Origin: Comamonadaceae bacterium
Lineage (GTDB): Bacteria; Pseudomonadota; Gammaproteobacteria; Burkholderiales; Burkholderiaceae_C
Reading direction: 5' to 3'
Length of the DNA stretch: 64,000 bases
Assembly (NCBI GenBank): GCA_947455145.1
Contig: CANGME010000003.1
Location: 186,001 to 250,000 of the forward strand
A model generated the notes under the pieces. It worked only from the letters and a program-made list of their open reading frames with translations. It made no database searches and was not told the origin of the DNA. The translations under genes were made by a program, and so were the position numbers. Positions 5,399 to 10,518 of this stretch are shown here, piece after piece (the first letter of the stretch is position 1; the number at the start of each line of letters is the position of its first letter).

Positions 5399-5913
5399 AT
5401 CACGAACCTAATGACAAGGGTTTGAGCACATCAGCCCAAACCGTTCGCATTACCGTCAACGGCACCTGCGACTCCCACGCCGTGATGCCACGCACGCACC
5501 TGATTGATTTTTTGCGTGAAGACCTGGGTCTCAAAGGCTCGCACCTGGGCTGCGAGCACGGTGTGTGTGGCGCGTGCACCGTGCAGCTAGACGGCAACAT
5601 CGTGCGCGGCTGCTTGGTGCTGGCCGTGCAGGCCGATGGCCGACGCGTGGACACGATTGAGGGCCTGAGCGAGAGCGGTGTGATCCGCGATTTGCAAGCC
5701 GCCTTCATCCGCCACAACGCCTTGCAGTGCGGCTTTTGCACTTCCGGCATGTTGATGGCCGCCAGCGAATTACTCGATCAAAAACCCAAAGCCAGCCGTG
5801 AAGACGTGCGCGAATGGATATCCGGCAACTACTGCCGCTGCACCGGCTACCAAGCCATTGTGGACGCCATCTGCGAGGTGCTGGCCACCCGCGCCCAAGG
5901 AGTCACCGCATGA
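5395..5913 (+). CDS. Molybdenum hydroxylase [2Fe-2S] small subunit (CoxS-like)
   Basis: A 172-residue iron-sulfur subunit. The N-terminal plant-ferredoxin-type cluster is seen in GCEHGVCGACTVQLDG plus a later Cys. The C-terminal four-helix cluster domain has QCGFCTSGMLM and NYCRCTGYQAIVDA. The family core is about 155-165 residues; the extra N-terminal 15 or so (MNHEPNDKGLSTSAQ) are non-conserved. It shuttles electrons between the molybdenum cofactor in the large subunit and FAD in the medium subunit. It overlaps both neighbours by four bases (ATGA). Confidence 0.95.
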   Translation: MNHEPNDKGLSTSAQTVRITVNGTCDSHAVMPRTHLIDFLREDLGLKGSHLGCEHGVCGACTVQLDGNIVRGCLVLAVQADGRRVDTIEGLSESGVIRDLQAAFIRHNALQCGFCTSGMLMAASELLDQKPKASREDVREWISGNYCRCTGYQAIVDAICEVLATRAQGVTA

Positions 5914-8351
5914 ACGCCCCTGAGAACCGCCAACTGGAAAAGGCCTTGCAAAAAGCAGAAGCCCCACACGTGCCGCTGGCTCCCCCACTGGCCGCACCCC
6001 TGCAAGACGCCACCCACATCGGCCAGCCCATCCCCCGCCCGAACATCAAACGCCTAACCGAAGGGCGCGGCCAGTACGTGGACGACATCGAACTGCCGCG
6101 CATGGGCCACGTCGTGTTCTGGCGCTCGCCCGTCGCCCATGCCCGCATCGTCAAAATCGACCGTGAGGCGGCGCACAAATTGCCCGGCGTGCTGGCCGTG
6201 TACGACGGTGCCGACCTCGCCACCATCTGCAAGCCCTGGGTCGCCACCCTCACCCACCTGGCCGGCATCAAATCGGCCCCGCAGTACCCCATGGCCATAG
6301 ACCGCGCCTGCTGGCAGGGCGAGCCCGTGGTGGCCGTGGTGGCCAAAACCCGCGCCGAGGCCGAAGACGCCTTGCAGCATGTGCAGGTGGAGTGGGAATC
6401 TCTGCCCGCCGCGCTGGACATGGCCACCGCCCTGCACGCGGACACCCCGGTGATCCACCCCGAGCTGGGCGACAACCTGTGCTTCACCCGCAGCCTGGAC
6501 ACCGGCGGTGTGGACGAAGCCTTTGCCAGCGCCGCCGTGGTGGCCGAAGCCACCTTTGACTTTGGCCGCCACACCGGCGTGACGCTGGAGCCGCGTTGTC
6601 AGATTGCGGACTACAACCCCGCCTCGCACCAGCTCACCGTCTACCACTCGCAACAGGCCCCGCACATGATGCAAGACCTGTACGCGCGCCAGTTTGACCT
6701 GCCAGAAGCCAACGTGCGCGTGATCTGCAAAGACGTAGGCGGCTCCTTTGGCATCAAGGTACACGCCTACCCGGACGACTTCGCCACCGTGGCCATTGCT
6801 ATATTGCTCAAGCGCCCGGTGAAGTTTGTGGCGGACCGATTGGAGTCATTCGTCAGCGACATTCACGCGCGCGAGCACCGCATCAAAGGCCGCATTGCCG
6901 CGAATAAAGACGGCGATATTTTGGCTTTTGAGATTGACGACCTCACCGGCATCGGCCCGTTCTCCATGTTCCCGCGCACCAGCGGCATTGAGGGCAACCA
7001 GGTCGTCAACCTCACCGGTGGCCCCTACAAACACAAGGCCTACCGCGCCAAGCTGGACGTCGTGTTTCTCAACAAAACCCCCACTTGCCAATACCGGGGC
7101 GTGGGCCACCCGATTGCCTGCGCCGTGACCGAAGGCCTGGTCGATCTGGCTGCCGCCAAGCTGGGCATGGACGCGCTGGAATTTAGAAAGCGCAACGTCA
7201 TCCCCGACGACGCCTACCCCGCCACCGGCGCGTCGGGCATCAAGCTCGAAGTGCTGTCGCACGAAGCCTGCTTGCGCAAAATCGAAACGTTAATGGACTA
7301 CCCCGCGCTCAAGGCCGAGCAAGCCGCGCTGCGTGCCAAGGGCATTTACCGGGGCATCGGCTTTGCCACCTTGATTGAACTCACCAACCCCGGCGCCGCC
7401 TTCTACGGCGTGGGCGGCGCACGCATCTCGGCGCAAGACGGCGCCACCATGCGGCTGGAGCCCGGTGGCGGCGTGGCCGTGATGGTGAGCGTGGGCGAGC
7501 AAGGCCAGGGCACGGAAGCCATCTTTGCGCAGATTGCGGCCGACGCGGTGGGCGTGCCCATGCGCAACGTGCGCCTGCTCACCGGCGACACCGACGCCGT
7601 GCCTTACGGCGGCGGCACCTGGGCATCGCGCGGGGCGGGCATTGGCGGCGAGGCCGTGTTGCAAGCCGGCCTAGCCCTTCGCGACAACATCCTGAAAGTG
7701 GCCGAGGCGATATTGAAACGCGACGCCGCATCATTGCGCCTGAGTGACGGCGTGGTGACAGACGCCACCACCGGCGAAGCCCTGCTGCCCCTGCCCGAAC
7801 TGGGCCGCGTGGCCTACTACCGCCCCGACACCTTACCTGCGGGTTTCACGTCAGAGCTGATGGTGACGCGCCACTACGCCCAGCGCGACTACCCCTTCAT
7901 CTTCACCAATGGCGTGCAAGCCAGCTACGTGGAGGTGGACACCGAAACCGGCTTTGTGAAGCTGCTCAAACACTGGGCCGTAGAAGACTGCGGCCGCGTC
8001 ATCAACCCCATGCTGGTGGACGAACAAATCCGCGGTGCCATCGTGCAAGGCATAGGCGGCGCGCTGTTTGAAGAGTGCCTGTACGACGAAGACGGCCAAA
8101 TGAAAAACGGCAACATGGCCGACTACCTGGTGCCCATGGCCGGTGAGATGCCCGACATCGTGGTGGAGCATGTGGAGACGCCCACGCGCAGCTCGGTTCT
8201 GGGAGCCAAGGGCGCGGGGGAAGCGGGGACGGCGGGGGCACCCGGGGCTGTCGTCAATGCTATTAATGATGCGCTGCGGCCTTTGGGGGCGCAAGTGTGG
8301 TCGCAGCCGGTGACGCCGGAGAAGATTTTGCGAGGGTTGGGGAGGGTTTGA
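5910..8351 (+). CDS. Molybdenum hydroxylase catalytic large subunit (CoxL/xanthine dehydrogenase family, not CO dehydrogenase)
   Basis: An 813-residue molybdopterin cytosine dinucleotide-type catalytic subunit. The start at 5910 (ATGA overlap with the small-subunit stop) is used; an in-frame opening 32 codons upstream lies inside the small-subunit gene. Landmarks are the N-terminal hammerhead RLTEGRGQYVDDIELPRMGH, the VGGSFGIK loop, QYRGVGHP in the active-site loop, and GAKGAGEAG near the C-terminus holding the catalytic Glu. The AYxCSFR loop that marks true form I CO dehydrogenase is absent, so this should hydroxylate an aldehyde, N-heterocycle or similar carbon centre with water as oxygen donor. 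The neighbouring dihydroxypyridine-hydroxylase-like enzyme favours an N-heteroaromatic substrate; that is inference. Confidence 0.92.
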   Translation: MNAPENRQLEKALQKAEAPHVPLAPPLAAPLQDATHIGQPIPRPNIKRLTEGRGQYVDDIELPRMGHVVFWRSPVAHARIVKIDREAAHKLPGVLAVYDGADLATICKPWVATLTHLAGIKSAPQYPMAIDRACWQGEPVVAVVAKTRAEAEDALQHVQVEWESLPAALDMATALHADTPVIHPELGDNLCFTRSLDTGGVDEAFASAAVVAEATFDFGRHTGVTLEPRCQIADYNPASHQLTVYHSQQAPHMMQDLYARQFDLPEANVRVICKDVGGSFGIKVHAYPDDFATVAIAILLKRPVKFVADRLESFVSDIHAREHRIKGRIAANKDGDILAFEIDDLTGIGPFSMFPRTSGIEGNQVVNLTGGPYKHKAYRAKLDVVFLNKTPTCQYRGVGHPIACAVTEGLVDLAAAKLGMDALEFRKRNVIPDDAYPATGASGIKLEVLSHEACLRKIETLMDYPALKAEQAALRAKGIYRGIGFATLIELTNPGAAFYGVGGARISAQDGATMRLEPGGGVAVMVSVGEQGQGTEAIFAQIAADAVGVPMRNVRLLTGDTDAVPYGGGTWASRGAGIGGEAVLQAGLALRDNILKVAEAILKRDAASLRLSDGVVTDATTGEALLPLPELGRVAYYRPDTLPAGFTSELMVTRHYAQRDYPFIFTNGVQASYVEVDTETGFVKLLKHWAVEDCGRVINPMLVDEQIRGAIVQGIGGALFEECLYDEDGQMKNGNMADYLVPMAGEMPDIVVEHVETPTRSSVLGAKGAGEAGTAGAPGAVVNAINDALRPLGAQVWSQPVTPEKILRGLGRV

Positions 8352-8474
8352 GGTAAAGCCCGATCAGTATATTTCGGCGGCCACATTGGGCAGGGATATT
8401 TGACGTTTGACGGTCCCATTGGGACGCGAACCGTGGGCCACACTCAATCGTTGAGTTCAGCGAGGTGTCGGTAG

Positions 8475-9185
8475 TTCGGTCATATCATTGCGGTTTGGCA
8501 ACTTGGCCGTTTGGGAGCCACTCTGTCCTCAGTTCTGGCGACAGGCGCTTGGTTTTTCGCGCGGGGACCAATGCCGCTGGACATCTTCTTCGCAAACCTA
8601 GTAGCTCAGGGTCTTGCGTTCCTAGCTGTATCGATGCTCGTCGCGGAACTGATTCGAGCCCTACAGGTGGAATATGACCTGCGGCGAACTGACAGCCTCA
8701 CTGGTCTGCCCAACAGAGCTGCCTTCTTCGAACGTGCGGAAGCATGTCTATTGCTGTGTAGTCGAAGTGGACGCGCGGTATCCATGGCATTCATCGACCT
8801 AAATGACTTTAAACGTGTAAATGATTCGTTAGGACATGCCCATGGCGACAAAGTACTCAAGGAATGCGGCCGGCTTCTTGTGGCAGCAATCCGCGAGACT
8901 GACATTGCAGCGCGGCTCGGGGGAGATGAGTTTGTCATCTTTCTGCCAAACACAGACGAGGAAGCGTCAACCGCCACTCTGGATCGGCTTCACACTGCGT
9001 TTGCGAGCTCACTTGAGCTGCAAGCGGCATGTGTAGAAGCGAGCATCGGCATAGTCGTAGACGAAGCAGCGAGGTCCAGTATTGCTGACTTGCTGGAACG
9101 TGCGGACGCGCGCATGTACTCAATCAAGCGGGCTGCCAAAACTGGAGGAAGAGGCTTTTCGGCGAACCTTAGCGCTGATGCCTAA
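8475..9185 (+). CDS. Diguanylate cyclase (GGDEF), N-terminally short, possible integron cassette gene
   Basis: The open frame runs from 8475 after a TAG. The only common in-frame start before the domain is TTG at 8511, giving 224 residues. From there about 45 residues form the last one or two membrane helices (ATGAWFFARG, AFLAVSMLVAELIRAL), then a complete GGDEF domain: TDSLTGLPNR, FIDLNDFKRVND, RLGGDEF (GGDEF at 137-141). The inhibitory site RETD sits five residues before GGDEF, so catalysis and product feedback should both be possible. Most relatives have more membrane helices, so the 5' part is probably missing. Codon use is less GC-biased than in neighbours. The TAA stop is embedded in an attC-like site. 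No neighbour suggests its signalling target. Confidence 0.8.
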   Translation, partial: FGHIIAVWQLGRLGATLSSVLATGAWFFARGPMPLDIFFANLVAQGLAFLAVSMLVAELIRALQVEYDLRRTDSLTGLPNRAAFFERAEACLLLCSRSGRAVSMAFIDLNDFKRVNDSLGHAHGDKVLKECGRLLVAAIRETDIAARLGGDEFVIFLPNTDEEASTATLDRLHTAFASSLELQAACVEASIGIVVDEAARSSIADLLERADARMYSIKRAAKTGGRGFSANLSADA

Positions 9186-9243
9186 CGAATAAGGTTAGAT
9201 CGCGCAAGCAAAGCGCAGCCGCGATCTAAACCGGTTGTTGGAC
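9180..9243 (+). other. attC-like integron recombination site (59-base element)
   Basis: Starts with GCCTAAC (R'' box, consensus RYYYAAC) at 9180-9186 and ends with GTTGGAC (R' box, consensus GTTRRRY) at 9237-9243. Between them GGTTAGATCGCG (9193-9204) pairs with CGCGATCTAAACC (9220-9232), leaving one unpaired base in the 3' arm, as attC sites require an extrahelical base for strand choice. Length is 64 bases with a 15-base loop. The stop codon of the GGDEF gene lies in the R'' box, a usual arrangement in gene cassettes. No integron integrase is present in the window. Confidence 0.75.
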
Positions 9244-9486
9244 AAGCCCGAAACTCACCAACCATCTACAGAAAACATCTCCGGCCACCGGCCCCTGCGC
9301 GAAGGGCAAGTGGTTTGCCAAAGCCATCCTTTGCAACTGGCCCAAGTTGTCATTGCAACGCCCCCCGGCGTGGCGGCTTCATTTTGAGCGTCGTACCCCA
9401 CCAATTTTCCCTGTTTTTGGCCGAGCCCACCCACCACACCCCAGTCGCCTTGCTGGAGTGCGCTTGGCGCCAAAGGTACGCGCGCC

Positions 9487-10362
9487 TTAAATCGCCAGAC
9501 CTTGATCTTGATGACCCCCCGGCGGATCAGGCAGCACACAATCGGCCGTCGCCAAGATGCGCCTTCGCACGATCACCATCGGCGCGCCGCCACAGGAACA
9601 CAGCCACGGCGGGCGTGGCGAAGGCGCCTCAGGCGCAGCGGCAGGCAGCTTGAACACCAACAGGTGCAACAACGCGATCAGTCGTTTGCTATTGGGGTGC
9701 AGAAACCCAAAATTACGTGCCCGCCTAAACCCTCTGCGCAACACGTGCTGCAGCACCAGCCACAAGAAGGTGGCCCCACTGATCGTGCGCGTGGCCGTTT
9801 GGCCGTTTTGTTGGTCTTGCTGTCGCGCCAGCGATAGGTGACTCTCCCGTTCTGGCAGTCGATGATGTCTTTCTACTTAATCACACCCCGGTACATGTAG
9901 CGCCCCAGATAGACCAAGACCTTCTCACCCGAGCCTACGCACTTGCAGTCCACCACCTACTTCTTTGGCAAATCGGGCGGCAGCACCAGACCCTCTTGGC
10001 GCAAGGCATCGAGCAGCTTTGCCGCAAACACTTTGGCCGGGACCTTGTGGTTGAACAAATAGCCGCCCCATTTGGCGCTGGCGCGCAAACTGCGCCACAG
10101 ACGTTTGTCCGCATCCAACGCCCCAGCGGGCATGGCCACATGCACATGCGGATGAAAATCCAGCCGCCGTGAATGCGTGTGCAGCACCGCCACCGCGCCG
10201 GGGTTGCCTCGGAGTTGTTTGTGGTTCTGGCTGAACGTGTGCAGGGTTTGCCAGGCGCAGTCCATCATCGCCGTGTACACGGCGCGCTGGTGCTGCCAAG
10301 CCAGCGCACGCAACTGAGCCGGTAGCGTAAAGTGATGAGCAAGTAGCTGCCCGGCAAACCAA
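9487..10362 (-). pseudogene. Decayed IS91-family transposase
   Basis: Minus-strand pieces together match an IS91-type HUH transposase. From 10362 down: FAGQLLAHHFTLPAQ, VAVLHTHSRRLDFHPHVHV (HUH motif HPHVH), then DCKCVGSGEKVLVYLGRY followed by RGVIK and an in-frame TAG. After that come VTYRWRDSKTNKTAKR and, in a shifted frame near 9765-9690, RRARNFGFLHPNSKRLI and the zinc motif region ending in GAPMVIVRRR. One stop and at least one frameshift interrupt it. The N-terminal zinc-ribbon part is missing. Homology ends near 10362, exactly where an unrelated plus-strand MmgE/PrpD remnant begins, marking an old rearrangement junction. Confidence 0.8.
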
Positions 10363-10374
10363 GGCCTTGGATTG

Positions 10375-10518
10375 CCGCACAATCCAGCGCTGGCAGATAA
10401 GTTTCTGGGCAACGCAACACCCGTGATCGGCGCAGACCGGGCGCGTCGGGTGATCGACATGGTTTGGAAGCTGGACACACTGGGTGATGTGGGTGAACTG
10501 GTGCGGGCTTGTGCTTAA
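10375..10518 (+). pseudogene. 3' remnant of an MmgE/PrpD-family gene
   Basis: About 47 codons (NPALADKFLGNATPVI through GDVGELVRACA, stop TAA at 10516-10518) match the C-terminal end of MmgE/PrpD-type dehydratase/isomerase family proteins. The rest of the gene is not in the window; the 5' side is replaced by the IS91 remnant. Plus-strand orientation agrees with the downstream binding-protein, amidohydrolase and Bug genes, so the intact gene was probably first in that catabolic operon. Identification rests on a short segment and is moderately sure. Confidence 0.6.

What the first reader, a model, noticed from the sequence alone, without database searches (positions are those of the whole stretch)
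8450..9243. A diguanylate cyclase gene that looks like a single integron cassette with no integrase nearby
The GGDEF gene stop (TAA, 9183-9185) lies in GCCTAAC, the R'' box of a 64-base attC-like site ending in GTTGGAC. The inner arms (9193-9204, 9220-9232) pair fully with one extra base in the 3' arm, as attC sites need. A GTTGAGT (fits GTTRRRY) at 8450-8456 could be the upstream cassette border, giving a cassette of about 790 bases. The gene has less GC-rich codons and abuts a molybdenum hydroxylase operon. A second-messenger enzyme as a mobile cassette would let c-di-GMP signalling move by site-specific recombination. The 8450 match alone is weak, since such a heptamer is expected by chance every kilobase or so.
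Basis: partly seen in the sequence, partly recalled or inferred. Interest (0 to 1): 0.8.

Follow-up and report, generated by a model that had tools for sequence, protein, structure and literature searches.

The report
Integron-site transposon remnant beside truncated cyclase
The attC-like site is real, but it reads on the other strand and is the end of a decayed IS91-type jumping element that prefers integron recombination sites; the diguanylate cyclase gene beside it lacks its front end and is probably just the neighbour the element landed behind.

Summary
The 64-base attC-like site (9180-9243) is real: 0 comparable sites in 10 resampled windows, relatives in 13 of 398 other family genomes. 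Its direction is reversed: the extra base fits an attC on the minus strand. In 101 of 106 copies the bases after GTTGGAC are RAGCCCG with at most one mismatch, while the GGDEF side differs from copy to copy. The conserved side is a 2.4-kb element, 'E': attC, IS91-family transposase, Xer-like recombinase, fixed far end. E inserts at the integron core G|TTRRRY, often inside the R'' box of a cassette's attC, inverted; one copy splits the aadA1 attC of a class 1 integron. The window holds a dead E remnant (9186 to about 10394, minus) at the stop codon of GGDEF. That gene lacks about 50 N-terminal residues, and the 8450 border lies in sequence shared with a relative. A mobile c-di-GMP cassette is not shown. 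An IS91 element next to an attC is in print (ISShvi3); an IS91 branch ending in an attC and entering R'' boxes I did not find in eight library searches.

The parts
9180..9243 (-). attC site: R'' GTCCAAC 9243-9237, stem with extra base in the R''-side arm, R' G|TTAGGC 9186-9180 (crossover between 9186 and 9185)
   Evidence: copies
9186..10394 (-). remnant of the IS91-type element E; the attC above is its end; far end and recombinase gene missing
   Evidence: homology to L015, L018, L038 ends at 10394 in all three
9529..10355 (-). IS91-family transposase pseudogene, residues 88-363 in two frames (9795-10355 and 9529-9825)
   Evidence: tblastn with the L082 transposase, 70% and 66% identity
8475..9185 (+). 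GGDEF (diguanylate cyclase) frame, N-terminally truncated; GGDEF domain complete; first listed start TTG 8511; stop TAA inside the target core GCCTAA|C
   Evidence: PF00990 133.5 bits; longer relatives
8355..8478 (.). leader segment shared with G130 contig C168, not with the intact G130 hydroxylase locus; rearrangement point near 8475-8478
8450..8456 (+). GTTGAGT, proposed cassette border: rejected
   Evidence: lies within the homology to G130
5814..8351 (+). molybdenum hydroxylase large subunit, 93% identical to G130 over 7001-8354 (name by eye)

Best explanation
The attC-like site is the terminus of a decayed member of a family of IS91-type elements (here 'E'). Anatomy shown: read on its coding strand, a whole E of about 2.4 kb starts TTGGACGAAGCCGC, carries a Xer-like tyrosine recombinase gene and then an IS91 (HUH) transposase gene, and ends in an attC whose R'' box GTCCAAC is the complement of the start, as in an integron cassette. 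Target shown: the integron core G|TTRRRY, often the R'' box of a cassette attC, in inverted orientation and without target duplication, so that E lies between a gene's stop codon and the rest of its attC. Inferred: E leaves as a circle or single strand whose joined ends make a near-perfect attC and is joined to the core by integron-type strand exchange. Host IntI seems to me the likeliest recombinase, with the HUH transposase making the single strand; E's own Xer-like enzyme or the HUH transposase alone are not excluded. In the window an E landed at GCCTAA|C at the end of a diguanylate cyclase gene and then decayed; that gene lost its front end in a separate rearrangement near 8475.
For: Direction: extra bases on the R'' side in 5 of 5 resolved known attCs and in 4 of 4 E sites tested, the window among them, read on minus; of ten positions invariant in 8 independent attCs the window meets 9 on minus and 6 on plus (counted by hand). 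Linkage: RAGCCCG after GTTGGAC exact in 64 of 83 and 80 of 106 sites, 101 of 106 with at most one mismatch; several copies in one genome differ only on the other side. Element: IS91-type ORF in 21 of 81 loci; full copies to a fixed far end; 16 loci with both ends; IS91 model 361.6 bits against a cut-off of 125. Target: consensus GCCTAA|C at 70 alignable of 83 sites; L082; attC-like remainder at 11 of 24 distinct far ends, 1.2 expected; gene end at the junction in 63 of 85 sites against 22% of controls. Precision: L172, where the rest of the aadA1 attC (54 bases) is identical to an intact copy. Gamma relatives with the same layout. Window remnant; truncation of GGDEF.
Against: My covariance model of 8 attCs finds no E-type site. 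13 of 24 far ends show no attC remainder at the control's 95% level, and three of the 11 that pass have no excess of extra bases on the R'' side. Of five gamma relatives two lack the extra base, one has it on both sides, and in two the start and R'' differ at one position. IntI is above cut-off in only 28 of 50 E-carrying assemblies, against 79 of 200 genomes of the order, so dependence on IntI is not shown. No recombination was observed.
Confidence: 0.8

Rival explanations
1. One reading: GGDEF plus a plus-strand attC is a single integron cassette (8450-9238), now without integrase.
For: The stop codon lies in an RYYYAAC box, the gene has the lowest GC3 of the window's long frames, and the genome has an integron remnant.
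Against: Direction of the extra base, linkage of the site to the other side, truncated gene, failed border.
Confidence: 0.06
2. The attC is an ordinary cassette attC and IS91-type elements merely insert next to such sites.
For: Such adjacency was described for ISShvi3 in a Shewanella integron (PMC9229058, passages).
Against: The same attC travels with E across genera and in several copies of one genome; it ends short elements too, five of them under 0.46 kb; in L172 E's attC and the parts of the host's own attC are both present.
Confidence: 0.06
3. E is a plain IS91-family transposon whose origin hairpin resembles attC by convergence; the HUH transposase picks GTT-containing targets and the integron integrase plays no part.
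For: The site lies behind the transposase 3' end, where IS91 elements have their origin, and IS91 targets are short tetranucleotides (recalled, no call). Insertions outside integrons, for example in a repeat in L096. 22 of 50 carriers lack a full IntI.
Against: Full attC box layout, start complementary to R'' in the copies and in three of five gamma relatives, target consensus equal to the integron core, many insertions inside attC R'' boxes.
Confidence: 0.2
4. GGDEF was the 3' part of a true cassette whose attC was split by E, with the rest of that attC lost when E decayed.
For: Stop codon exactly at the junction, as in 19 of 85 sites; a different gene with an attC in G130 behind the same leader.
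Against: No cognate start upstream, N-terminus missing, no attC remainder in the window. Compatible with the best explanation; only the origin of GGDEF differs.
Confidence: 0.3

Closest known systems
IS91 family (HUH/Y2 rolling-circle insertion sequences, ISCR included)
   Same: Transposase matches NF033538 far above cut-off; no target duplication at L082 and L172
   Different: Carries a Xer-like recombinase; ends in an attC; target core is GTTRRRY rather than the GTTC/CTTG recalled for IS91
ISShvi3, IS91-like, in a Shewanella integron
   Same: IS91-like element adjacent to an attC, giving a new cassette structure (PMC9229058, passages); probably of this branch (inference)
   Different: The passages seen do not describe the attC as the element's own end, nor insertion into R'' boxes; its sequence was not compared
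IS1111-attC elements and group IIC-attC introns
   Same: Mobile elements that target attC sites (passages)
   Different: Different enzymes (DEDD transposase; ribozyme and reverse transcriptase); E also carries an attC itself
Integron gene cassette
   Same: E has cassette anatomy: start complementary to R'' and an attC behind its genes
   Different: Its genes are recombination enzymes; it sits inverted inside other attCs and also outside integrons

Membership tests
Integron cassette (the GGDEF gene) | attC behind the gene, in the gene's orientation | tested here: not met
   attC reads on the minus strand
Integron cassette (the GGDEF gene) | Upstream border GTTRRRY cognate to R'' | tested here: not met
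   8450 lies in shared sequence; no TTAGGC start seen upstream (by eye)
Integron cassette (the GGDEF gene) | Complete gene | tested here: not met
   about 50 N-terminal residues missing
Integron cassette (the GGDEF gene) | Excised and inserted by IntI as a circle | not testable with these tools
   no reads or experiment
Integron cassette (element E) | attC at the 3' end, start complementary to R'' | tested here: met
   16 loci with both ends (the search pattern itself fixed both boxes); 3 of 5 gamma relatives exact, 2 differ at one position
IS91 family (element E) | IS91-type Y2 transposase | tested here: met
   361.6, 360.2 and 344.4 bits, cut-off 125
IS91 family (element E) | oriIS/terIS ends and IS91-type target tetranucleotide | tested here: inconclusive
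   precise ends found but the target is GTTRRRY; IS91 ends known from recall only
Integron integrase (E's recombinase) | Score over TIGR02249 and the IntI-specific insertion | tested here: not met
   74-79 bits (shortened frames) and 154-170 bits against 265; about 40 residues of IntI4 unmatched between the two aligned parts
Attack on attC by IS1111-attC or group IIC-attC intron | DEDD transposase or group II intron | tested here: not met
   E's genes are IS91 and Xer-like; Rfam found no intron in 7800-9900
Integron or CALIN at this locus | IntI nearby, or at least two attCs | tested here: not met
   one site in the window; intI remnant on another contig

The most novel reading that the evidence does not exclude
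A whole branch of IS91-family elements uses an integron attC as its origin end: rolling-circle transposition makes the single strand that folds into attC, and integron-type recombination places it into attC R'' boxes. E and its short copies would then also leave attCs behind ordinary genes, a possible route by which new cassettes arise.
Probability: 0.2. Interest if true: 0.9.

Novelty: new variant of a known kind. Interest (0 to 1): 0.62.

Why it matters
Integron arrays are known to be invaded by IS1111-attC elements and group IIC-attC introns. E would be a third kind, based on an HUH transposase, that carries an attC itself; record titles place its copies mainly in Beta-, Gamma- and Zetaproteobacteria (many of them metagenome bins), and one relative sits in a class 1 resistance integron. 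Its attC end can make a transposon end look like a lone cassette, as happened here. If its movement depends on IntI, it ties HUH transposition to integron recombination in a directly testable way, and an element that leaves an attC behind a gene bears on how cassettes are made. The claim that prompted this, c-di-GMP signalling as a mobile cassette, is not supported at this locus.

Tried and rejected
Rfam on 7800-9900 gave nothing relevant. DNA folding did not settle the direction: minus strand z -1.9, plus strand z -2.3. A first stem scan with a cut of 11 missed the window site, which scored 10.5. The covariance model of 8 attCs found 5 attCs of the C5 array (three of them were in the model), and sites in L024, L034, L066, L170 and L172, but no E-type site; I did not add E sites to it, which would be circular. 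The site itself had no match in 72,556 plasmid records. The GGDEF protein had no relative at E 1e-40 in 250 family genomes except itself. IntI presence does not separate E carriers clearly. An earlier count said seven copies in the zetaproteobacterial genome; the listing shows six.

Literature, held open-access library only: IS91+attC+integron+oriIS (1 paper), IS91+attC site+gene cassette+transposase, IS91 family+tyrosine recombinase+insertion sequence, attC+IS1111+insertion sequence+integron, IS91+integron+attC+cassette, ISShvi3, terIS+attC, attC+cassette genesis+integron. Passages seen in PMC9229058, PMC7923331, PMC8876359, PMC8527097, PMC11187229, PMC9345347, PMC11023631 and PMC8352920; the others as listings. 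ISfinder and most subscription journals were not searched, so E may already bear IS names.

Full report
What was checked. The finding proposes that the GGDEF gene ending at 9185 plus a 64-base attC-like site (9180-9243) is a lone integron cassette starting at 8450. The site is there as described. A pattern scan with a stem score finds it once in the window (read in both directions) and never in 10 Markov-1 resamples. A DNA search in 399 genomes (own and family) found a 95% copy at C3:99037-99100 of the same genome and matches of 73-94% over the site in 13 other genomes.

Direction. I took attCs of known direction: class 1 plasmid integrons and this genome's own array on contig C5. In the five that the script resolved, of eight tried, extra stem bases lie only in the arm next to R''. 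The window site has its extra base in that arm only if read on the minus strand: R'' GTCCAAC 9243-9237, R' G|TTAGGC 9186-9180; three more E sites behave alike. Ten positions are invariant in an alignment of eight attCs outside E; compared by hand, the common betaproteobacterial E site meets ten on minus, the window 9 of 10 on minus and 6 of 10 on plus. The L172 copy lacks the T15-C16 pair, so this holds for the betaproteobacterial type. My covariance model of those eight attCs nevertheless gave no hit in the window and none at E-type sites of 16 other loci; the E stem has one more base pair before the extra base.

What travels with the site. A scan of the species genomes with a 23-base pattern gave 103 stretches. 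In 83 oriented sites the seven bases after GTTGGAC are RAGCCCG in 64; over 106 sites 80 are exact and 101 have at most one mismatch. On the other side little but YYYAAC is kept. Six contigs of one zetaproteobacterial bin, and six of two bins of set 336R, agree through the site and the bases after it (up to a few differences) and differ before it. So the site belongs to the RAGCCCG side. There an IS91-type ORF on the opposite strand recurs: the cluster holds 21 of 81 loci, mostly at +220 to +1400, followed in several by a tyrosine recombinase ORF at about +1500 to +2400.

The element. Copies run to a far end reading GCGGCTTCGTCCAA|C. Sixteen elements in fifteen loci show both ends: nine of 2.41-2.48 kb and seven of 0.29-1.03 kb, five of these under 0.46 kb (the search pattern fixed the boxes of both ends). 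On its coding strand E begins TTGGACGAAGCCGC and ends in an attC whose R'' is GTCCAAC, the complement of the start. The transposase scores 361.6 and 360.2 bits with the IS91 model (cut-off 125); the recombinase is Xer-like and below the IntI cut-off. In four copies translated the recombinase frame ends in an out-of-frame tail, and in eight copies a run of seven or eight A precedes the HSLRHSY coding stretch, which looks like a programmed -1 shift; the gamma copies L170-L172 are annotated with one open frame.

Where E sits. At 70 alignable sites (13 of 83 dropped; the alignment pattern itself required AACG) the target consensus is GCCTAA|C, on the other strand G|TTAGGC, the integron core. In L082, an integron with intI, attI and a GFA-like cassette (names by eye), E lies inside the R'' box of that cassette's attC, and the start of the remainder follows the far end. 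Of 24 distinct far ends with at least 150 bases (from 29: three duplicates and two short ones dropped) 11 reach the control's 95% attC score, 1.2 expected, and 5 reach the 99% score; the eight best all have more extra bases in the arm next to E, so the split box is R'' and E is inverted; one of the eight, L093, is an E attC itself. Three of the 11 show no such excess and 13 of 24 do not pass; L096 sits in a non-integron repeat. An ORF of at least 70 codons ends within -80..+20 of the junction in 63 of 85 sites, against 22% of 1700 control positions; in 19 its stop ends exactly there, as GGDEF's does. ORFs starting away on the other strand are fewer than in controls, 19 of 85 against 48%.

E beyond this lineage. 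tblastn in 72,556 plasmid records found transposase and recombinase pairs at roughly 40% and 50% identity. In Salinivibrio kushneri, Photobacterium ganghwense, P. toruni, Pseudoalteromonas sp. Bsw20308 and an E. coli IncC plasmid an attC-like hairpin follows the transposase and a TTGAAC[GT]AAGCCGC start lies before the recombinase (that of Pseudoalteromonas read by eye). Start and R'' match exactly in three of the five and differ at one position in two; two have no extra base and one has one on each side. A Herpetosiphon pair gave no convincing site. On the E. coli plasmid (NZ_LT985243.1, L172) E lies between aadA1 and qacEdelta1 of a class 1 integron; the R'' heptamer adjoins E's attC end, and the remaining 54 bases, identical to those of the intact attC in L168, adjoin its far end. 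That copy covers at least 80% of the query in 1 of 72,556 plasmid records and in 0 of 5,426 E. coli genomes.

The window again. Homology to E copies runs from the site to 10394, and the transposase remnant is in two frames without its first 87 residues: a dead, truncated copy. The GGDEF frame opens at 8475, right after a TAG. The nine listed relatives that align from query residue 4-6 on have frames of 287-381 codons (eight) or 889 (one); in an alignment of relatives about 50-56 residues precede the point where the window protein begins. The homology of 8135-8478 to G130 contig C168 passes through 8450 and stops at 8478. In G130 that leader is followed by a sequence also found beside the intI remnant on C5 of this genome (by eye), then by another gene with an attC (L034:6458-6544), while the intact G130 hydroxylase is followed by different DNA from 8354 on. 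So this spot has an integron-related history and GGDEF may once have been part of a cassette, but nothing left in the window shows it.

The genome. Contig C5 carries an IntI piece (model positions 1-160, one stop) next to an array in which the model finds five attCs, three of them used to build it. C3:92000-106000 has a copy of the site next to a toxin-antitoxin-like pair and a DUF1330-like gene, between two partial copies of a threonine dehydratase region (gene names by eye).

How it works. Shown: anatomy, linkage, target, orientation, precision. Inferred: a circle or single strand with a near-perfect attC, exchanged at the core. Who does it is open. IntI is above cut-off in 28 of 50 E-carrying assemblies and in 79 of 200 genomes of the order, a weak excess from incomplete assemblies. 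E's recombinase lacks about 40 residues that IntI4 has between its two aligned parts, and the HUH transposase could act alone.

Known or new. ISShvi3, an IS91-like element, has been described next to an attC in a Shewanella integron, by authors who detected no IS interrupting attC sites (PMC9229058, passages). IS1111-attC elements and group IIC-attC introns target attCs (passages). In eight searches of the held library I found no description of an IS91 branch that ends in an attC and inserts into R'' boxes; ISfinder and subscription journals were not searched.

Noticed in passing
L033:5889-12700 (G000:C5): Chromosomal integron remnant: truncated intI with a stop, then an array with five attCs found by the model (three used to build it) and genes that by eye include toxin-antitoxin-like pairs.
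   Followed up: partly
L032:4848-8751 (G000:C3): Site copy (95%) behind a toxin-antitoxin-like pair and a DUF1330-like gene, between two partial copies of a threonine dehydratase region (87-93% identical blocks); G221 has a related arrangement in L047.
   Followed up: partly
L050, L063, L066, L074, L089, L096, L109, L114: Run of 7-8 A just before the HSLRHSY coding stretch of E's recombinase, with a frame break in the copies translated: possible programmed -1 frameshift.
   Followed up: partly
L172 (NZ_LT985243.1): E-like element inside a class 1 integron of an E. coli IncC plasmid, annotated only as IS91 family transposase and site-specific integrase; a 254-base, 95% piece of it is in a Shewanella sp. 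ANA-3 plasmid.
   Followed up: yes
L059, L077, L103, L131: Short copies (0.29-0.46 kb) with both E ends, too short for the genes: non-autonomous derivatives.
   Followed up: partly
L029 about 1501-1819 (G381:C30): An E-type site broken off before its last bases, with a group II intron domain (RF02001, 116 bits) starting about 100 bases on: probably an attC-targeting intron in an E end.
   Followed up: partly
L020, L062, L110, L118: Second stem lineage (GTTTATCTGCCGC...) with the same R'' GTCCAAC, probably a related element type.
   Followed up: no
L034:6200-7349 (G130:C168): Second copy of the hydroxylase 3' end followed by a sequence also present beside the C5 intI remnant, and another gene with an attC.
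   Followed up: partly
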